From Neofusicoccum parvum (Eukaryota > Ascomycota > Dothideomycetes > Botryosphaeriales > Botryosphaeriaceae), in the NCBI GenBank assembly GCA_020912385.1, contig CP087215.1:1736001-1800000 (forward strand): DNA of 64,000 nucleotides. Direction: 5' to 3'. The notes beneath the pieces are model-generated. The model worked only from the letters and a program-made list of their open reading frames with translations. It was not told the origin of the DNA and searched no databases. Position numbers and translations under genes: made by a program. Of this stretch, positions 1,657 to 38,348 are shown in pieces (within the stretch, counting starts at the first letter, position 1; each line of letters opens with the position of its first letter).

Positions 1657-4600
1657 TCAGCCGTTCATCCTCGCCAGCAAATCACTTTGCCTCCTCTGCT
1701 GCTTCGTCATCAACTCCAACTCCTCCTCATCGCTCGTGCCCTCGCCCTCCGAGCTGCTATCCGAAGAGTCATTCCACTCATCCACACGCCCCGTTCCCAT
1801 TGGCTCCCCATCGACCTCGCGCCGCAACCGCGCACTCATCTCGCCGTCCGGCTTGAACGGCAGGTCATGCTTGGCGATGAAGTCGATCCACTCTTTGTAC
1901 CACCTGCCGCCGGTGTCGCGCACGCGCGCGCTCGGAATGCGGTGGCTGCTGCGCAGCGGCTTGAGGAAGAGGAAGGCCGTGTTCTTGTTGGCGCTGTGCT
2001 TCATGCGGATCCAGGCGATCTTGAACTTGTCGATGTTGAAGGCGAGGAGGACGAAGGGGATGGAGACGGCGAAGGAGATGCCGAAGAGCAGCGCCGACAC
2101 CCAGCCGATGGCGAAGTTGTTCTCGCCGTCGGTTTTGGGGAAGATGGAGATGCCGAGCGCGAAGAAGGACGCCATGAACGACAGCGGCAGGAAGATGATC
2201 GTGACCACGGTGAACACGAGGATCGTGCTGCCTTGTCTGGCGGCGGCTTCTGCGCCTTCGCGAGACGAGCGGGCTTCCCACAGGTTTGCTTGCTTTTGTT
2301 TGAGGTCAAGAAGATGCTCGAGCCCTTTCTCCACCTCTTTTGCATGTACCTCCATGAGATCGAAGCTGCATTCAGTCTCATTGAGCAAGTTCAGAACGTC
2401 TCCAAACTTGTTTTCATTGTCAGCGATTGAAGTGGTACTGGCGAAAGGAGCTCGCGTCTCAACCATGCTTTGGAGGGCGTTGACGACTTTGGTCTGGTCT
2501 TTCAAGACGGATTTGATCATCTTGATTTCATCCAAGATATCTTTAATCTCTTTGAGTAGCTTGGATTCCTTCAGAATATCCAACAGCTTTTTCAGAAGCA
2601 TGCTCCTATTTTGTGAGTAAGTTCTGTTCATTTCGTGCAAAGAGTGCAGCCACTTGGCTCTTCGGCGGAACCTTCTGAAGAGACGGGTTTGGTCCTCTTC
2701 CTGAGTTTCGTTTAGTGATTTGGGGCAGAATTAAACACGGTAGGCACTTACTGCGCGTCCAATGGCGCTCTCAAAAAATTGAAGGAAGTTTACGGACTCC
2801 ACATGCTGGTGACGGTCGAAGGCATTGCAGCAGACGGATAGAATACGAGAAACCAGGTCCATACTCGTTGAAATGGACTTCCGATTATCATCACCGAGCA
2901 CGCTTCCTTGGAGATCATCCACCTCTCTGGATGACTGCTGAAACTCAGCTCCTTCTCGCGAAGGAAAACTGGTGATTATGGTATCCGGCTCGCCGTCTTT
3001 CTTCCCCTTGATGAACCACAACCATAGTTGGTCAACCATCAGAATGTTGTGGTCTTTTTGATCAGGCCATTCTGTCTTGACCCAGCGGGACACAACTTGC
3101 GTTTTGTCTCTGTATGAAGTGTCCTTGAGCATGTAGTAATATGACTGATCGAGGGTCCTGTCATTGCCACATCATTTTGTTAGCACTGCAACGAGTACCC
3201 GGTTCCATGGGCGTGTGTGAACGATCAAAATCTAACATACCTTCGAATGTGGAGAGTGAGGTGCTGGTTCTCATTATGGTTTTGATCATTCAGATAGCCT
3301 TTCAGAGCTAAAACTTCAGGGTCTTCATTTCTCAGAATATACCCAAGCGTGCTGCTGACAGTCCGGGAAGGCTTCAACCGTGGTCCTGAAAGTGGCAGAT
3401 TTGGGAGCGCGAATGGTTTTGGAGCTGAAGAGCTGGTTCGCTTGATGACTTCCGCAAGTCTTTGCTGGCGAGCAGAACTTTCGTAACTTATGTAGGGCAT
3501 CTTTGTAGAACCATATTCAGTAAAGTTTTGGACTCGTGCATGATCGAGTACTTACGAACATGACCCAGTCATCCTTGCTTATTGTCCGGGAAGCTCGCTG
3601 CAGGCCGGGCAATTTTGTGGCTTCCGGACTCATATAGCGCTGATGAACACCTGCTTGTCAGCGGACAGCCTGTCAAGGTAGTGATACTTGGCATTTCATT
3701 CAACCATCTTCACTTACACCGTGATGAATCTTGCTTCGCTTGTGAGGCTTTGGCCACGGCCAGACCGACATTTCCAGTTTTGCGAAGAGATCCTGGGTTG
3801 TCAGCACGCACCAATGAAAAAACGTCTTAATCTTACCTGAACCCAGGCCATCTGCAAATGAAGGTCAGCTCTGTTTATGCTATGATGGACATTGACATAC
3901 GTTGTTCATAGGAACGTGATACCATCGACAAAGAGCATTCGATGCTTCGTTGTCATGCGTCGCTTGGAAGAAGTCGCCGATCTTATCGTCCGTGTATATT
4001 AAGTCGTGCACAGTCTTGTATACAGGAAGATGCTTATCGGGCTTGTCGGAAGCAGTGGAGAAGATCTCGCGGACCACCATGCCAGTATTTTGACATGCAG
4101 CCTGGGCTTGCTTATTGGCTGGCTGTCCTCTCACTAATTTTCGTGGTCCAGAAGGTCCTTCAACCAGGGGTGGTTTTCTGAGAAGATCTTTGATCTGAGG
4201 AAGGATGCTCTTTTCAAGGGCAAAACTTTGCGCTGATTTCCCAAGGTTGTTTTTGACGCCAGATTGAGCACCAGCCTTCAGGAGGTTGTAGACCATCTCT
4301 GGGCTGTTGTGGCGATGCGTACTAGTGACCGCAATGTGGAGTGCCGTGTTGCCGGCCTCGTCCTGGAGATCCAAGTCAACCTTGTCACTGTTTACCAGGT
4401 GTTGGACAAGCCTGGTATATCCGCGCTCAACTGCTACGTGTAAAACGGTTTGCTGCTTTCTGTTTTTGAAATTGAAGTCGACCGAGGATTTGAGCAATTC
4501 CTCCATAACGGCATCGTCGATGTCTTTTCCGCAGAGCAATAATTGGTGGACAGCTAAGAATTCGGAGATCGCCTTCGAAATATTCCTGAACCGGACATCT

Positions 4601-6391
4601 TCCGGACGGACAAAGCGCGCAATGCCGCCGATATCATGATCAGACAGCCATCGGCGATCAAGACGATCGGAATACTTGTTTGAGTTTATGTCTGAAGACT
4701 TAGAATTTTTGGGCTGGCTCCGCTCAAAATATCCAAAAGTTGCGATGTGGTGTTTCTCTGTGCCCTCGAAAAATCGATTCCATATCCGGTCAGGTATGTG
4801 TTCCGTCCCTTTACGAGCGTCAAAGAGTTTCGTAGAAGCCTTGTGGATGTCGAAGGTCTCGGTCGCCCAGCTTATTATGTTGTCGAAGCTCTCGAAAGGA
4901 GCGCCGAACATGGTGACCGCAGCGGTAGATTGTACCAAATCAAGTCTGGAAGCCTCTTCATCAGTATTGAGAAGTTCTCCGAAAAGTAGCTCCTCAATCA
5001 CGACGTTGCCGTAGCCATGGCCAATGAAAACAATGGGATTTGTGCTCATATGACCTCGTTCGTTGAGAAGACGACTGAGTATATTCGAGGCTGCCCACTT
5101 CAAATCAATGGGAGCGTTGACGCTCTTGAGTCGTGAGTTGATATCGAGGCCAAATCCCATGATTCGAGCTGTAGGAAGAGATTTTGGGAGCATGTCGGGA
5201 TCTTCCAGCCAGCTCATCTTGGCTATCTGTGCCTGCTCACTGTCTTTTTCTCGCATTGATATTTGAGGGACTCCATTTGCCTGGGACTTTGAAGATCTGC
5301 ATCCTGTTAGTGCTTTTTGTCGTCTAAGACGAGTGAGAGGATGAGACAATGGGGAAGAGATGGAGAAAGTAACGCGAAGTTCTCCTGTGACGCGGAGGTG
5401 CAGCAAGGAGCCGGAAACGCTGACTCGGAGAATATTTGCAACGTCTTGAAAAATAAATTCCGTGCGCTTCTGTAAGATTTAATGGGATGTGAAGCAACGT
5501 ACTTCATGGGGGGTCTCTTCGTATGTCCTTTTGCAACCTCTTCTGCTGGAACGTTCAATTGTACTCCTCCCTCCTTTGGCGGGCGTAATTGAGAATCTCC
5601 AAGTTTCTTGATCGTGTTTTGCTTCTTTTCCCGAAACATGGTTAGCTCCCAGTCTTCATCTCTCCTCCGATCGCCACACATGTAAATGGCGACGACATCG
5701 ATAGGGCATCCGCCTGATCTGATTTGAGGATCACGAAAGTTACGAAATTCAATCTCTGGTATGAGATGGCTGAATTGTGCAGGTGGCGGGGATTGTGCAC
5801 TGCAATGCGTCAGTGAGTTTACATATACCATCAAAGTCAACTTTCTTACTCTCGGACTTTGCTGTTACGCCTCTCGTTCCCTCGCCTTCCACCTCCAGTC
5901 GTAGTTCTTCCAACACTCAGCAAGTTTGTTGGTAACTGCAAGCGTATTTGGTCCCCGTGTTTGTTAGCCTTTGGCGAAGGGGGACCTTCTGAGCCGTTCA
6001 GAGTAATCAAGCTTTTACTACGCTTGAGCTTGAGCGGTGGCGGCGATGCGGGATTTGCAGGGGCAATGGGATCGGGCTCCTCGGTCAGGGAAATTGCTAT
6101 ATCTGGCGCGATTCGTTGAGCAGGTGGTGAGGAATTTCTGTATGAACCAGCCGGAGGCGGGCCTTTCCCTAGAACATGTCAAATTGTGTCTTAAGAGCAC
6201 TTTGCACAGGGCCGGTTCCGCGAAAAAATATTGCGACATATATCTGTTCGGGCATTTAAAGCATTCGTCCGGACGCAAGTGTGCAGCGAAAGAAACGTCG
6301 AACCCGTCTAGATGTATAGCTCGGTGCATGTGTCCGAGTAGTCAATGATTGGAAATCGAGACTTACCCGCCGCCTTGCGTGGTGCATCCAT
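1657..6391 (-). CDS. SERAC1-like/ankyrin/CorA-like membrane protein
   Basis: Multi-exon gene of about ten exons and about 1,300 residues. Early exons fit 6391-6367, 6168-5850, 5799-5503, 5323-3901 and a 15-nt exon 3851-3837; later ones run to the stop at 1657. Domains in order: a low-complexity N-terminus; an alpha/beta-hydrolase region of SERAC1 type (CPIDVVAIYMCGD, later ARIMGFGLDIN and FIGHGYGN near residue 314); about three ankyrin repeats near 500-595 (TVLHVAVERGYTRLVQHL, NTALHIAV); a helical region containing TLDQSYYYMLKDT; and a C-terminal CorA-like part with two membrane segments and an acidic tail. The nucleophile Ser of GHSxG is Gly317, so the hydrolase part should be inactive. No GMN pore motif is seen after the first membrane span. 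Such proteins are widespread in filamentous fungi with no settled function; magnesium transport is not supported. Intron 1 contains a dispersed repeat. Confidence 0.8.
6252..6317 (-). repeat. dispersed ~65 bp repeat, copy A (in an intron)
   Basis: Read on the minus strand, this copy runs from CATCTAGACGGGTTCGACG to a core GCGTCCGGACGAATGCTTT. Three further copies on the plus strand, at 30043, 59767 and 60088, share the same order of blocks. The core holds the perfect 10-bp palindrome CGTCCGGACG. This copy lies wholly inside intron 1 of the ankyrin/CorA-like gene, in the same orientation as the gene. Confidence 0.75.
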
Positions 6392-21062: not shown

Positions 21063-23687
21063 CTAGTGAGGAATCTCGTCCACCAGAGCATTGTAGATGT
21101 TACCCGCTAAGAGATTGACATGGTTTCCTAGCTTTGATTGCCGCCGGGCCCGGGCTGGATCGAAGAACTTGGCAAACTGTAATGGATAAAGTCCCTTCTC
21201 CATTTCAGATTCGCCAATTAACTTCAATGTTGCCCTAATGCCTCTATAAGTCCTCATGGTTTCCTCGACACCTATTTCTTCAGCAAGCGGTCCGACTCTC
21301 GAGAATTCGAGAAGTAAGGAAACTGAGCCAGCAACAAAGGGAGTTGCAAACGAAGATCCACACTGTTCGATTTTCTCATCCAAATTCGGTTCCCCTTTCT
21401 CATTCTTTCCTGACTTTGCAACAAGCTGTGGAAGAAGATAATGCTCAGCTAGGGCCATGAATCCCTCTCCTCCATAGACAGCTGGACAGTAATCTGTTTT
21501 GTTGCCGTTGGCGGTCGCTGGGTAAACGGCAACGACATTTTCGTTCCGAGCAGGCCACGCAATTTCGCCTCGCTGATTCCTTCCATCGTTCGACGCTGCT
21601 GCAAACACCAAGATATCCATTTTCTGGCCTTTTGATCGACGAGATCTATGCGTAGCGTTGCTCAGTGCCTCGTCGATATCCGGGTACGGGTTAGGATAGC
21701 CAAAGGACATGGACATTATGTCGACATCCCATTTATCAGCTGCGTAGTTGATAGCAGTGGCGACGGATGCAGAGTTGATTTGTTTTCCGTCTTTCGAAAT
21801 GCGCGCAATGTAAATTTCCGCGCGATAAGCAACAGTGAGGATCAATGATGCACAGCGGGTGCCATGGCCATTGCAATCTTTCCATTTGGATTTTCCTTTT
21901 GGAAGGATAATTGGCTCCTGTTCTGTTGAAGACAGATCTGTGAAGTCTGCGTATTCTCGGATTTGGCGTTGTCTAGACCATATGAATTTGCATGTGTGGG
22001 CCTGGTCCGAGAACTCTAGACCTGTGTCCAGAACGGCGATTTTGACTGGAATTGGCTCATCGAAGTGCCCCAAAAGGATATTTGAAGCTCTCCATAGTTT
22101 TGCTATTGCATGAATTGCAGCCCGTCGACTGGAATGTCAGTCCAGATACTCACGAAAAATAGCGAAGAGAGACTCTTACAGTGTAAGATTTGGCTCAGGC
22201 GTTTGGGCATCAAAGAAGATTGCTGGGCTCGACTCAACTCGGTCCAACTCCTCTTGTCCGAAAGCAATTCTGAACATATCCTGATCATCTGTGTGTTTCA
22301 ACGACAAATGTGAGCAGGAACTTCGGTGATAACCTTTAGAGCGGAACATACCAGAATAGGCATTGTTGGCAGACTCAACGTATCGGTATTCTTCTAAGGA
22401 ACTCTTTTCCTCCGATTCATTGGCATGTGTGAGCAATTCTGAAATCTCAGCAGTCTTGAGGCGCTTCTTGTGTGATGTTTCCTCTTCGTTGCACGACATC
22501 ATACGCTTTTCTGTTCCTTCGTCTGTAAATTTTGGCCTGTGGTGGGTTTGAAAGTCATCCAGGCTGTGGGTGGGATTGAATTTTGCTGATGGTGAAATCA
22601 AAGCTGAGGTGTTGCTGTCGCTTTGGCTTACTGCTACTTTGTGCGTAGTATCAAGCTGTGTTGAGTCATATCTTTGTTTAATGTTCCCACCCGTTGGTCT
22701 TGCACTTGAAATAGTGCCCCCCAGTGTCTCCTTGCCGTTTGAGGTGGTCTGAACACGTTTTAAGATATGGACACTTCCACTTGTTTTTGCCCTTCTCCAG
22801 TTACGTCGAGGACGGGATATATCGTTCGGTAGGAGACTGGCCTGGAAAACCACCGCATTCAACCGATGCTCATCTCGAACTTCTCTCTTGCAGCTTTCGG
22901 AATAGAGCATCGCGTCTTTGGCAAGGTCTATCATATTCGGTCTTTCTGCCCATCCCCATTTCTTCAAACTTTCCAAATTTGCTTCAAACTCAGAGTTGGC
23001 TCTTCGGAATGACCTCGAGAGGTATAAAAATGTTGCGTAGTTGTGTCTGCTCTCGATCATCTTTCGAAATGCTTCATTCACCAACTCCTCATCTTCTGAA
23101 TCCTGAATGCATCTCTTCCAATTTTCAACCCTGTGATTCAGATTTCGCTTCTCAAGCCAGAACGCCTCGGAGTATTTGCCTTGACCGGAAAAGCATAGAG
23201 CAAGGTGATAGACAGTCTCATAGACATCGTCTGAGCTCGGACTCCAAGAAGCTGCTTGGTCGAAGTTTTTGCGGAAAAGGTCTGTGGCCTCTCTGAGTTT
23301 GGGCACCAGTTTGATGTCTTTCCTGCTCTCAGCGAGTAAATCTTTGGCTAGATTGTGTCTTGAATCCCACGCGTCGCGGCTGTGTTGGCCGATCGCTTCG
23401 CCCTTAGAGAGAGTTTCGCGGTCCCATTTTTCCGCCTCCGCATAGCTACCCAAATGATAGAAACATAGTCCAATTTTACGGCGAATCTCGAGCTGGTTCC
23501 TGATACCCCTGTTATTGACAAAGACGGGCTTGCCCACTTCCAAAGCTTGCTGTAAAACGGCCACGGCTTTTTCAAAGCTCCCAGCTTTGAAGAGTTCAGT
23601 ACCTTCGTCATACTTGCGACGAAGGTTGTCGATATGCACAGAAAGCATACCATCATCGGAGCATCCTGACGGCAGCTGGAGTGGCAT
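21063..23687 (-). CDS. TPR-subtilase (S8) protein, candidate gasdermin-activating protease
   Basis: Three exons, 23687-22352, 22288-22180 and 22128-21063, join in phase to give 836 residues. The N-terminal ~300 residues are helical with TPR-like units (YDEGTELFKAGSFEKAVAVL, IGLCFYHLGSYAEAEKWD, YHLALCFSGQGKYSEAF). A Ser/Thr-rich linker follows to about 480. The C-terminal part is an S8 subtilase with all catalytic residues: Asp516 in AVLDTGLEF, His570 in NGHGTRCAS, Ser741 in CGSSFATPF, with oxyanion Asn662. There is no signal peptide, so it should act inside the cell. In fungi, such proteases, often with repeat domains or NLR-like architecture, sit beside gasdermin genes and cleave them (HET-Q2/HET-Q1). 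A gasdermin-like gene lies 2.3 kb beyond its start. No NB-ARC or NACHT is visible. An acceptor-like CCCATCACAG just before the ATG leaves an upstream exon possible. Confidence 0.85.
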
Positions 23688-24232
23688 ACTGTGATGGGAA
23701 TTTCTTAGTTGAAGAGTGAAAATGACCGATCGGCCGGGGTCCGGGGGGCCTTTGGATGCACAAATTTCGGTGGGACATAGCCTCGGCCAGAACGTGATAT
23801 GAAAATCTGTTTTTGTCGGTGGCTGCAGTATGCATGTCAGCAGTGTGGGAGATAAGGATTAATAAGAACCTCCTCGTCAAATAAGGGCCAGCAAGAAATA
23901 TGAGCTCGGCTGATTGATCCCTGCCTGTCAGCAGGGCGCGCAAGCAAAGCTGATAGTGGCCATTTTAGAATTGCGAGCTCAGCTGGATGACCTCGACATG
24001 GCTTGCATGAACTCGACGTACATGGCTTATTCTGTATAGCCTATGCGACTTAATTACGCTCGAAAAAAAAATTCTTCATTACGATAACCGTACTAATCTG
24101 ACGATTGAATGCGCATCTCCGCCTGATGGCTCAAACGTCGGCATGGTCTCTGTCAACCCCAGCCTAGCATGATCATCGACGAACCAACAACATAACACAT
24201 GTACATTTCAATGACGTACTTACCTCAACGAC
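23688..24232. other. divergent promoter region
   Basis: This 545 bp stretch separates the TPR-subtilase and the membrane-protein gene and presumably drives both. No domain-bearing frame is present. A possible branch-point/acceptor pair for an upstream exon of the protease gene lies at about 23690-23715. Confidence 0.45.
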
Positions 24233-25585
24233 ATGCCCGCTCTACCATACAATCCGCGGATAACAGTATTACCCGCAAGACATGCGACTGATTATGCCCC
24301 ACAAGCGGTACATCGGTCTACGAAGACAGTCACAATCACCATTACGGTCAACATAGCCCTACAACCTTCGTCAACAGCTAGCACACATAGCCCGAGCTAT
24401 GGGTTAACGACTCCAGTAAATGAGCAACACCATGGCTTATCGAATGCACAAGAAGGAGGCATCATTATTAGCTCTTTGCTTCTTCTCATAGCCATTGGGG
24501 TGTTCTTACACTTTTGCTGCTGGAAGCGCTATAGAAAGCAATACTTTCAGTCATGGAGTACAGATTCACCTTCATCCAATTCACCACCTCCAAGAAGATG
24601 GCCTCAAGGACCGCTGGGGGCTGGGCAAAGCAGAGTGGCAGGAGCTTACGCGGCAAGAGAGCGGGTCGCAGTTGAGCAGGCAGCCAGAGAACAGGCTGCC
24701 AGAGAACAGGTCATTAGAGAAGAGACTACAAGAGAAGGTGTTGCACTGCCGCAGACTGTCTTTGAAGCGGAAGAGGTTGCTTGGCAAGGCACTGCAAGCC
24801 AACAGACTATATTCGATCCACCTGTTTCGCATGCGGCACCAAATGAAGAGGACAATCCAACAGAACAAGCTACCGAACGATACATCAGAAGGTCCGGCCG
24901 GAGGAATTCTCAGCCTCGTGTTATCCATACAGCAACTCCAGTGGACCCCCCGAGACTAAATCTGTTCACGAGACAACGGGCTGATCGGGAAGATTATGTT
25001 CCATCCCGTACTTCTGAGTGCGGAGATCCTGCGGCAAGAGGTTGGATTGTAGAAGCTGGTCGCGATCGTCCTGTTCGTCTGGAATGTGAGCACGAGGGTT
25101 CTTTAAGGGACCATGTTCATCGTAGACGGTCGGCTCGGCGCCGAACAACTGCACCAGCGTATCCACCACGACTAATTCCACACGAGCGAAGGCCTCCCAC
25201 AGCTATTCAGCCGAGCTATAGGAGAAGTATCAGGCGTGGTATTGAACGTCTTATCGATGCGTGGCAGGAAGGAAGACGCCAACGGTACGAGCAGGAGGAA
25301 CTCTGGTCCCCGAAGCGAGACCTGAATGATACCGCAATGTTCATACCATTCAGTGACCTACACCACGTGCCACCGGATTCACAGAGAGGGGATCCAAATT
25401 CCAGAGTTGCAACGAACCAAACCCACAACAACCGGCGCAGGACAAGGCCAAGGGCAGGTGATCCCAGAAGACATCATAGACGGAGCTTTGAGAACCCGGA
25501 AGGAAACCACAGGGTAAGAGAGGTCGAATCTGAAGCACGGGTACGGCGTCATCATAAAACAAAAGTACGAAGAAGAATGACTTGA
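24233..25585 (+). CDS. single-pass membrane protein of unknown function
   Basis: Intronless frame of 450 residues. The first ~75 residues are Thr/Ser/Pro-rich (TKTVTITITVNIA), followed by one clear membrane segment, GGIIISSLLLLIAIGVFLHF, and a Cys/basic border CCWKRYRKQ, implying N-out, C-in topology. The cytosolic part begins with a charged repeat region around residues 145-170 (AAREQ repeated, then VIREETTREGVA), then is Arg-rich and disordered to a very basic C-terminus. No typical cleaved signal peptide is seen, so the N-terminus or an upstream exon may be missing. I recognise no family. It lies between the TPR-subtilase and the gasdermin-like gene, on the gasdermin's strand. A role in the same module is only a positional guess. 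Confidence 0.65.
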   Translation: MPALPYNPRITVLPARHATDYAPQAVHRSTKTVTITITVNIALQPSSTASTHSPSYGLTTPVNEQHHGLSNAQEGGIIISSLLLLIAIGVFLHFCCWKRYRKQYFQSWSTDSPSSNSPPPRRWPQGPLGAGQSRVAGAYAARERVAVEQAAREQAAREQVIREETTREGVALPQTVFEAEEVAWQGTASQQTIFDPPVSHAAPNEEDNPTEQATERYIRRSGRRNSQPRVIHTATPVDPPRLNLFTRQRADREDYVPSRTSECGDPAARGWIVEAGRDRPVRLECEHEGSLRDHVHRRRSARRRTTAPAYPPRLIPHERRPPTAIQPSYRRSIRRGIERLIDAWQEGRRQRYEQEELWSPKRDLNDTAMFIPFSDLHHVPPDSQRGDPNSRVATNQTHNNRRRTRPRAGDPRRHHRRSFENPEGNHRVREVESEARVRRHHKTKVRRRMT

Positions 25586-26019
25586 CTGCCAGAAGCGTGC
25601 ATGGAACCTCCCTCAACTCGTGGGTGCATTGGTACATCAGAGCTCGGCTTTGTACATATCCTTGAATATTCAAGCAGTATCATGAGCTTTTATGTATATT
25701 TTATCTTTGAAGCATGGGTTTTGGGCTGTTTGGAAAATTTACATCCAGGTTGTCAATTCGCTTAAGAAGCTCAAGCGTGAGATGCATCTTCAGAGATCAA
25801 GAAAACAAACCGGGGTTATATCCCAAGTAAGGTTCTCAGGCTTACTAATTCGTAAAGATGCCTGAAATTTTCCCTTGCATTGAACAGGCCAGCAGAACAC
25901 GTATGTTCTCCATGGAAAGGATAAGCTGAAGAGCCTGATGACCGGCAGATGCCGCGGGCTCGGTCAAACAACACCATCTCCATCAACCTCTTTCCCGAAG
26001 ATCGCCTTTGATCGTCGCA
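25586..26019. other. promoter region of the gasdermin-like gene
   Basis: A 434 bp spacer. The first half is AT-rich and probably 3' untranslated sequence of the upstream gene; the rest should hold the gasdermin promoter. No clear TATA element is seen near the start. Confidence 0.45.
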
Positions 26020-26892
26020 ATGAAGACATACTTTCTTGTTCCCTCTACCGAGATCGCGCCCGATGGCCTCATCAAACTTGGCAACATCATAGTCTCCCCG
26101 CGTCTGGTGGAAGAGCCAATCAACAGTGGGCCGCCTCCAGAAATCCCACCAGCCTTGCGCCAGGCCGACCACATCGAAGAGAACTGGTCATGGGAACACG
26201 AGAACCACCACGCATTCAACGGAGGTGTCTGGGCTTCGTTCCTGCAGCTCATCCTCGGTGTAGGCGCAGATGTTGGCGGCGGCGCGTCGTGCAGCGCCAG
26301 GGAGATGTACAGCGCTGCGCGATTGACGACGACGCGGTTCAGGCCCAACCTCGACTACGTCAAGCAAGCCGTTGCAGCAGACGATGTCCAGGACTACCTA
26401 AAAGGCCAGAACCTTTTCCGGCACAAGGATATGTACATGGTAACGGCGGTCAAGATTGCCAGTGGGGCGTTCATCGCAAGGCGGAAATCGCGTGATCGCA
26501 ACGCCAACTTCAGTCCGGTGGTCGACGGGACTACTATCGCCATGATGCCCATCTCGGCGGGTTTCAAGGTTGAGGGCTCGCATGGAGGGTCTGATACGCG
26601 GTCTGCACAAGTCGTCAATGACATTGTGTTTGCATATCAGCTGAGGCAGATACGCGTCAAGAAAAAGGGCGAAGAAGAGTCAATTACCCATCAGCAATTC
26701 ACTGATGGCGCGTTCTACAATCTAGACGACATGGATATTGATGAGGGGAGTACGGAAGAGGCAGAATTTGAAATAGCAGAATTTGCAGACGAAGACAGTT
26801 CTGGATCGGAAGTCGGAATGGGCATCCGTCTCTGGGACGCAGTGGATGACAACGAGGCCGAGCTCTGCCAAGTTGCTGTTTTGCCAAAGTAG
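26020..26892 (+). CDS. fungal gasdermin-like pore-forming protein (HET-Q1/RCD-1 type)
   Basis: Intronless gene of 290 residues. Residues 1-235 follow the layout I know from fungal gasdermins: a start with a strand, then DG and KLGNII (EIAPDGLIKLGNIIVSP); an acidic/polar region; GGVWASFLQLILGVGADVGG near 68-87; RFRPNLDYVKQAV and VQDYLKG; the hallmark MYMVTAVKIASGAF near 138-151; and NDIVFAYQLRQIRVKKKG near 200-217. The pore domain ends around TDGAFYN (228-234). A 55-residue, strongly acidic tail follows. In HET-Q1 a comparable short tail keeps the protein inactive until a subtilisin-like protease cuts it, after which the N-terminal part forms plasma-membrane pores and kills the cell. The subtilase gene 2.3 kb away fits that model. 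The ATG at 26020 is the first in frame. Size agrees with known fungal members (about 250-290 residues). Confidence 0.84.
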   Translation: MKTYFLVPSTEIAPDGLIKLGNIIVSPRLVEEPINSGPPPEIPPALRQADHIEENWSWEHENHHAFNGGVWASFLQLILGVGADVGGGASCSAREMYSAARLTTTRFRPNLDYVKQAVAADDVQDYLKGQNLFRHKDMYMVTAVKIASGAFIARRKSRDRNANFSPVVDGTTIAMMPISAGFKVEGSHGGSDTRSAQVVNDIVFAYQLRQIRVKKKGEEESITHQQFTDGAFYNLDDMDIDEGSTEEAEFEIAEFADEDSSGSEVGMGIRLWDAVDDNEAELCQVAVLPK

Positions 26893-36802: not shown

Positions 36803-38348
36803 ATGAAGTGCACTACGCTCCTCACCCTCCTCTCCGCGGCCCTCGCCGCCGCCGCACCATCGCCGCACCTGCGCCGGCGCGACACCAAGGAATACGACGT
36901 GCTCGCGTCGCCGAGCGCCGACGTGGCGGCGCTGCTGTCGCGGCTGGGCCTGTCGCCGGCCAACGACGGCGTGTTCGCGACCTTCGACAACGCGCGCTTC
37001 CGCGGCTTCTCGGGCGCCATCACCGAGGACGAGGCGGCGGCGCTCAGAGCCGCCGACGGCGTGCTGAGCGTCGAGGAGGCGGTCGAGATGGCGCCGCAGG
37101 CGAGCAGGAGCGATGCGCCGTGGGGACTGCAGCGGATCTCGTCGGAGGGGGCGGTGGCCGTGCAGGGGAGTGTGACGGCGAGGAAGTGAGTTGGTGGTTT
37201 CTTTTTTTTTTTTCGTTTTGTGCTTTGCGGCGGGAGGGGGTGGTTGTGGGAGATTCTTTGGCGAAGAGATCAAGAGAAGAAAGTTTAAGAGCATGGAACT
37301 TATTTTGGAGAGGGGAGAAGACCTGTGAATAACTCTGGCTGACCGTTCGCTTTTTCCCCCTCCCTCAGCTACACGTACACGTGGGACGACGCGTCGACGC
37401 TGGGAGAGGGTGTAGACATCTACGTCATGGACTCCGGCATCTATCTCGAGCACGAAGAGTTCGCAGGCCGTGCGACCATGGGCTTCAACTTCTACGATGA
37501 TGCGCCAGGAGACAGATACGGCCACGGTGAGAGACCGCCCTTTCGCCCGACAACCAGCAACACCACCTGAGAACCCCTAAGCGCTGACGTTCCCCAGGAA
37601 GCCACTGCGCGGGCACCGCCGGCGGCGAAACCGTCGGCGTCGCCACGAACGCGAACCTGATTGCCGTCAAGGTCATTGCAGATGCCGGTGGCGGCACCTC
37701 GTCCGGCGTGAGTCCAGCCCCATCATCACCCGCCACTTCCCAACTGCTTCTCTCAACCAAAGTCCTAACCCACCCCTCCACCAGTACCTCGCCGGCCTCG
37801 ACTACATCCTCACCACGCACGCCGCGCGCTCCACGCAGCCCGACTTCGTCGCCTCCGTCGTCTCCATGTCGCTCTCCTTCAGCACCGTGCTCGCCGCCAT
37901 CGACAACTCGACGCGCGAGCTGCCGGCGGCGGGCATCCACCTGGCCATCGCGGCCGGCAACACGTACGATGACGCGTGCACGTACAGCCCGACGTCGGCG
38001 GGCGGGCCGGGCACGCCCATCGTCGTCGTCGGCGCCTCCACCGCCGCCGACGCCATCCTCTGGTTCAGCAGCTCCGGCCCCTGCGTCGACGTCTACGCCC
38101 CCGGCGCCGACGTCGTGTCGGCCGGGCTCGCGGGGCCCGCCGCCTACGTCGCCGACTCCGGCACCAGCATGGCCGCGCCGCACGTCGCCGGCCTGCTGGC
38201 CGTCTTCGTCGGCGACGACGGCGCGCTCGACTCGCCTGAGAAGGCGAAGGCGAAGGTGGTCGAGAGCGCGAGGGCGGGGGCGCTGGCGGAGAGTGCGAAT
38301 TTCGTGGAGGGCGGGGAGGTGTTGTTGGTGGGGAATGGGGCGTATTAG
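36803..38348 (+). CDS. secreted proteinase-K-type subtilisin (S8A)
   Basis: Four exons, 36803-37185, 37369-37526, 37598-37707 and 37785-38348. A signal peptide (MKCTTLLTLLSAALAAAA) precedes an inhibitor I9-type propeptide that ends near SVEEAVEMAPQ, which acts as chaperone and inhibitor until cleaved. The mature enzyme shows the catalytic Asp in VDIYVMDSGIY, His in GHGSHCAGTAGG across an intron, oxyanion Asn in AIAAGN, and Ser in SGTSMAAPHVAG. The Asp motif reads DSGI instead of DTGI, a mild and tolerated change. Total length of about 400 residues fits proteinase K and cuticle-degrading proteases. It degrades extracellular protein. It is unrelated in use to the intracellular TPR-subtilase at 21-23.7 kb. 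Intron 1 is the longest (183 bp) and includes a T-run. Confidence 0.94.

What the first reader, a model, noticed from the sequence alone, without database searches (positions are those of the whole stretch)
21063..26892. Gasdermin-like protein beside a TPR-subtilase: a probable protease-gasdermin cell-death module
Seen: a 290-residue protein with fungal gasdermin hallmarks (KLGNII start, MYMVTAVKIASGAF, DIVFAYQLRQIRV) lies 2.3 kb from an 836-residue cytosolic protein with a TPR-like N-terminal half and an S8 subtilase with intact Asp516, His570 and Ser741. Known: in Podospora the subtilisin-like HET-Q2 cleaves the gasdermin HET-Q1 and triggers regulated cell death, and fungal gasdermin genes often neighbour protease genes. 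Inference: this is such a pair. Its sensor would be a TPR array directly fused to the protease with no NB-ARC/NACHT seen, a pared-down NLR-like layout.
Basis: partly seen in the sequence, partly recalled or inferred. Interest (0 to 1): 0.92.

Follow-up and report, generated by a model that had tools for sequence, protein, structure and literature searches.

The report
Fungal gasdermin, protease and membrane-protein trio
A fungal genome holds a pore-forming gasdermin beside a sensor-like protease that probably cuts it to kill the cell, which is a known kind of pair, but an overlooked membrane-protein gene sits between them and the same trio recurs at a second place in the genome.

Summary

Contig C4 carries the same three genes in the same order and orientation. 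The membrane-protein family was found only at these two loci, nothing outside the trio matched between the window and 28 kb of C4, and the membrane core is the trio's best-conserved stretch (43 of 64 residues, against 28 and 26 for gasdermin and S8). I read this as a three-component variant of the gasdermin-protease system. The membrane protein's role, and even its expression, is unproven.

The parts
21063..22128 (-). protease exon 3: S8 subtilase domain (D516, H570, N662, S741 of the 836-aa model), stop codon at its low end
   Evidence: Pfam S8 E 1.2e-22; catalytic motifs VLDTG, NGHGT, AASN, GSSFATP; PDB subtilisins about 1e-7
22129..22179 (-). predicted 51-nt intron (GTAAGA...CAG) that keeps the frame past the TAA
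22180..22288 (-). protease exon 2 (linker)
22289..22351 (-). possible 63-nt intron (GTATGT...CAG), in frame whether spliced or not
22352..23687 (-). protease exon 1: TPR region (about residues 26-190) and low-complexity linker; start ATG at 23687
   Evidence: Pfam TPR_16, TPR_12, TPR_1 E 3e-6 to 3e-7; no Walker A
23688..24232 (.). 545-bp divergent intergenic region between protease and membrane-protein genes (possible shared promoter, not tested)
   Evidence: coordinates; same divergent layout at C4
24233..25585 (+).
   Evidence: residues 1-130 match the C4 counterpart at 3.8e-16 with masking on; two loci found in the genome; true frame has no stops and the lowest dN/dS of six frames; codon usage does not favour the frame
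24461..24517 (+). hydrophobic segment (residues 77-95), followed by basic KRYRK (N-out, C-in by the positive-inside rule)
   Evidence: mean hydropathy 2.65 over 19 residues; lies in the best-conserved stretch, 43 of 64 columns identical to C4
26020..26892 (+). 290-aa fungal gasdermin
26698..26718 (+). residues 227-233: candidate cleavage zone at the end of the pore-forming domain (inferred)
   Evidence: G230 and A231 each in 38 of 48 rows, F/Y at 227 in 34 of 48; last strand of the confident domain ends at 227
26713..26889 (+). 59-residue acidic C-terminal tail, net charge -17, low pLDDT: presumed inhibitory
   Evidence: tail negative in 47 of 48 rows, median -14

Best explanation
This is a cytosolic cell-death module of the fungal pyroptosis-like kind. 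Shown: a gasdermin (sequence and predicted fold), a TPR-subtilase with complete catalytic residues and no recognisable nucleotide-binding domain, and between them an ORF for a predicted single-pass membrane protein; the same three genes in the same order and orientation at a second locus. Inferred: the gasdermin is held inactive by its acidic tail. The TPR half of the protease senses a trigger or partner. The activated subtilase cuts near residues 227-233, at an aromatic or hydrophobic residue as reported for HET-Q1 F238. The freed domain forms plasma-membrane pores and the cell dies. The membrane protein, predicted to face outward with about 76 residues and inward with about 350, probably ties sensing or assembly to the plasma membrane. 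The stated confidence is for the protease-controlled gasdermin; the part given to the membrane protein is much less sure (see the rival and the novel case).
For: Gasdermin homology and fold. Protease with catalytic residues and TPRs. 4 of 5 gasdermins near an S8 hit. The window S8 domain finds four other kin genes, 3 of them gasdermin-linked (C4, C13a, C13b) and 1 not (C3). Acidic tail in 47 of 48 rows. Trio at C4. No similarity outside the trio between the window and 28 kb of C4 at tblastx E 1e-3. Fourfold-site differences are comparable for the three genes (membrane core 9 of 17, gasdermin 29 of 46, S8 33 of 52), while the best 64-column stretch keeps 43 identities in the membrane protein against 28 in the gasdermin and 26 in S8. 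Literature: section 15 of PMC10197012 and passages; passages of PMC12881547; passages and section 7 of PMC10989679.
Against: No cleavage, toxicity or expression data. 1 of 5 gasdermins (C16) has no S8 or CHAT hit on its contig, and 1 of 5 Q2-like proteases (C3) has no profile match to gasdermin in its 10-kb stretch. The membrane protein: no relative in the protein database at 248-788 aa; codon usage favours the +1 frame at both loci (-0.241 true, -0.021 for +1 in the window; -0.114 and 0.059 at C4); over its whole length it is no better conserved than the others (143 of 423 aligned residues); the C13 pairs lack it. The TPR halves of the two trios are barely alike (E 0.031). The TPR fold was not modelled.
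Confidence: 0.8

Rival explanations
1. Plain two-gene gasdermin-protease module; the membrane-protein gene is a passenger that was duplicated with it and has an unrelated job, or is not expressed.
For: Described fungal clusters are mostly two-gene. The C13 pairs do without it. No annotated relative found. Codon usage atypical.
Against: It is the only other gene found kept with the pair after divergence near saturation at synonymous sites. It holds the most conserved stretch of the trio, and the family was found nowhere else in the genome.
Confidence: 0.4
2. The gasdermin works without cleavage, RCD-1-like, by meeting an incompatible allelic variant; the nearby subtilase is coincidental.
For: RCD-1 is the best structural match, and RCD-1 is reported as not cleavage-controlled.
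Against: An acidic tail is retained; an S8 hit lies near 4 of 5 gasdermins; the pair is kept at C4.
Confidence: 0.07
3. The subtilase is an ordinary housekeeping or secreted protease.
For: The genome holds at least 25 S8 match segments.
Against: TPR fusion without a hydrophobic segment above 1.27 over 19 residues; its kin found in the genome are mostly gasdermin-linked (3 of 4).
Confidence: 0.03

Closest known systems
HET-Q1 / HET-Q2 of Podospora anserina
   Same: gasdermin with a short C-terminal inhibitory tail and an S8 subtilase
   Different: HET-Q2 is reported as 388 aa; this protease is 836 aa with a TPR half, and a predicted membrane-protein gene lies between the two
Q2L proteases clustered with fungal gasdermins
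   Same: S8 fused to TPR repeats, within 10 kb of the gasdermin; described as a frequent architecture
   Different: the passages and sections seen name no single-pass membrane protein as a third gene; PMC12881547 speaks of 'two- or three-gene clusters' for fungal cell-death pathways without, in the passage seen, naming a third gene for gasdermins
[quoted passage not shown]
   Same: TPR-bearing protease controlling a gasdermin in a two-gene cluster
   Different: caspase-like protease instead of subtilase
RCD-1 of Neurospora crassa
   Same: closest solved structure
   Different: RCD-1 is reported to be controlled by allelic pairing, not by cleavage
Bacterial gasdermins clustered with protease genes
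   Same: gasdermin beside a protease gene (as reported); weak profile match
   Different: much more distant; prokaryotic

Membership tests
fungal gasdermin (fGSDM) | sequence homology to RCD-1 / HET-Q1 over the pore-forming domain | tested here: met
fungal gasdermin (fGSDM) | gasdermin fold | tested here: met
fungal gasdermin (fGSDM) | short C-terminal inhibitory tail | tested here: inconclusive
   59-residue acidic tail present; inhibition not tested
fungal gasdermin (fGSDM) | membrane pore and cell death | not testable with these tools
   needs expression
Q2L protease | S8 domain with complete catalytic residues | tested here: met
Q2L protease | gene within 10 kb of an fGSDM gene | tested here: met
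   2.3 kb
Q2L protease | repeat (TPR/ANK/WD40) sensor half, a frequent though not obligatory feature | tested here: met
   TPR_12 30.7 bits, cut-off 30.1; fold not modelled
Q2L protease | cleaves the neighbouring gasdermin | not testable with these tools
   needs co-expression
NLR | NB-ARC or NACHT domain | tested here: not met
   no Pfam match at E<=1 in the 504-codon frame of the first half; no Walker A in the 836-aa model
Mid2-like cell-wall sensors (middle gene) | Pfam Mid2 match above cut-off | tested here: not met
   15.9 bits, cut-off 23.2

The most novel reading that the evidence does not exclude
Some fungal gasdermin systems have three parts: TPR-subtilase, gasdermin and a dedicated single-pass plasma-membrane protein. 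The membrane protein acts as cell-surface receptor or assembly platform, so that a gasdermin death pathway can be triggered from the membrane or cell wall rather than only by a cytosolic sensor.
Probability: 0.35. Interest if true: 0.75.

Novelty: new variant of a known kind. Interest (0 to 1): 0.5.

Why it matters
What activates the putative sensors of these fungal death pathways is called a major open question in a 2025 review (PMC12881547, passage). A membrane protein encoded between sensor protease and gasdermin at two anciently separated loci gives a concrete candidate for the input or the platform, and a three-gene set small enough to test in yeast. The gasdermin-protease pair by itself adds one more case to a well-described class.

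Tried and rejected
Looked for other gasdermins with two divergent relatives as queries: the same five loci each time, plus one row on C1 at E 0.284 that was not counted. Looked for CHAT proteases: three loci, on C5, C1 and C9, none on C16.

Relatives of the middle protein among 5.8 billion proteins: 77 candidates, none at E<=1 (residues 48-135 scored, lengths 248-788 only). Since the N. parvum gasdermin is in that database, its middle gene may be unannotated or annotated at another length; I cannot tell. Gasdermin context in other fungi could not be fetched: viral contigs and genome contigs gave no confirmed relative.

Gene conversion was considered because synonymous divergence of the membrane core (dS 0.80) looked low beside the gasdermin (2.24; 1.81 on another alignment). 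Dropped: fourfold sites are comparable and the whole gene has dS 2.45. The first BLASTP value for the two membrane proteins (2e-40) was run without masking and is inflated by repeats; with masking and residues 1-130 only it is 3.8e-16 over 43 residues, 33 identical. Comparing a chosen core with whole proteins is unfair, so best stretches of equal length were compared. Codon usage did not support the middle ORF (against me); conservation by frame did. At C3, one of the 48 gasdermin queries gave a weak tblastn hit (E 0.008, 24% identity); the profile gave none, and I treat it as chance. In an earlier tblastx (E values shared among linked pieces) a few pieces of 25 bits or less fell outside the trio; they did not recur. 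HET-Q1 is not among the 50 rows of the structural comparison; the separate Foldseek run was never accepted.

Rows dropped: 8 of 55 database hits (P0023, P0025, P0033, P0040, P0043, P0046, P0047, P0054) were left out of alignment A2 and of the tree for odd length or fusion. The C13b gasdermin, which has a TAG in frame, was left out of the tree.

Literature: 8 searches. Gasdermin with Botryosphaeria gave one paper, whose passages concern mycoviruses and a porcine antibody; gasdermin with Neofusicoccum gave one, on Klebsiella, seen as a listing only. No item seen names a membrane-protein neighbour of fungal gasdermins. Clave et al. 2022, the primary survey, is not held and was not read.

Full report
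Setting. The window is C10:1736001-1800000 of a 44-Mb, 18-contig assembly. The closest database gasdermin is from Neofusicoccum parvum (96% identity), so the source is probably a Neofusicoccum or close kin; the genome itself is unnamed.

Protease. D516, H570, N662 and S741 are present, with no Walker A motif. Pfam gives TPRs in the first half and S8 in the second. No hydrophobic segment reaches transmembrane level, consistent with a cytosolic protein.

Linkage. Three gasdermin queries find the same five gasdermins in the genome. S8 hits lie within 5 kb of four: the window, C4 and two on C13 (distances 3974, 4108, 322 and 339 bp). With 25 S8 segments in 44 Mb, random placement gives about 7e-9 for at least 4 of 5 within 5 kb, 9e-8 within 10 kb; the loci are not independent, so this is a guide. 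The C13 neighbours are DUF7580 and S8 frames with the Asp, His and Ser motifs visible. The C16 gasdermin has no S8 or CHAT hit on its contig. A search with the window's S8 frame finds four other kin genes: C4, two on C13, and C3, which has DUF7580 and S8 frames but no gasdermin by profile in its 10-kb stretch.

The third gene. Between protease and gasdermin lies an intact ORF, 24233-25585 (+), with one strong hydrophobic segment, then a basic stretch and an Arg-rich tail. At C4 the layout is the same: TPR and S8 frames, a divergent membrane-protein gene, then the gasdermin in the direction of the membrane-protein gene. The two membrane proteins match at 3.8e-16 over residues 61-103 with masking on (33 of 43 identical), and the start codon lies 65 codons before the conserved core in both. 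A whole-genome search finds the family at these two loci only. tblastx of the window, in three pieces that leave out about 400 bases, against 28 kb around C4 gives 25 matches, all inside the trio.

Age and constraint. Fourfold-site differences are 9 of 17 (membrane core), 29 of 46 (gasdermin) and 33 of 52 (S8), so the three genes could have been duplicated together. Over whole alignments the three are similar (143 of 423, 94 of 278 and 88 of 243 identical), but the best 64-column stretch has 43 identities in the membrane protein, 28 in the gasdermin and 26 in the S8 frames. In a 51-row tree the window gasdermin groups with N. parvum and Lasiodiplodia theobromae (100/100), while the C4 one sits with P0036 from Zopfia rhizophila (88/94) inside a separate group (96/92). 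Two independent assemblies of the trio are not excluded.

Is it a gene? For: over the 325-bp ungapped DNA match, the true frame has no stops, the highest amino-acid identity (63 of 108) and the lowest dN/dS (0.39; other frames 0.63-1.23). Against: codon usage favours the +1 frame at both loci (six training frames only), and no relative is annotated in the searched length range.

Known ground. Section 15 of PMC10197012 reports about 80% of fungal gasdermins clustered with protease genes, about 63% with S8, and 18 domain architectures covering roughly a third of about 1500 such proteases, most of these with ANK, TPR or WD40 repeats. Passages of PMC12881547 say protease domains are frequently fused directly to such repeats. 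So the pair belongs to a known kind. The membrane protein is what I found in none of the passages seen. Clave et al. 2022, the primary survey, could not be read, so this absence is weak.

Verdict. Observation confirmed; interpretation right about the pair, overstated on the novelty of the layout, and incomplete. The most interesting content is the third gene kept at two loci.

Noticed in passing
L034:5607-6662 (C13): Gasdermin relative with one in-frame TAG, beside DUF7580 and S8 frames: decaying copy or unrecognised intron.
   Followed up: partly
L031:5666-6502 (C16): Gasdermin with no S8 or CHAT hit on its contig; matches RCD-1-2 at 4e-4. Possibly a cleavage-independent type.
   Followed up: partly
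L045:4882-6921 (C3): DUF7580 and S8 frames of the gasdermin-linked type with no gasdermin by profile in the 10-kb stretch.
   Followed up: partly
P0046 and P0047 (database proteins): Gasdermin-like proteins of 352 and 383 aa that run into the start of a patatin domain: true fusion or merged gene models.
   Followed up: no
L030:6069-6232: 15-bp tandem repeat (10.9 copies) in the C4 membrane-protein gene; the window copy has only 2.3 units (24677-24710), so length may vary between strains.
   Followed up: partly
window 37581-38348: A second S8 frame 11 kb from the gasdermin; not among the kin found with the protease's S8 frame.
   Followed up: partly
window 3880-5478 (-): 532-aa frame with ankyrin repeats.
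   Followed up: no
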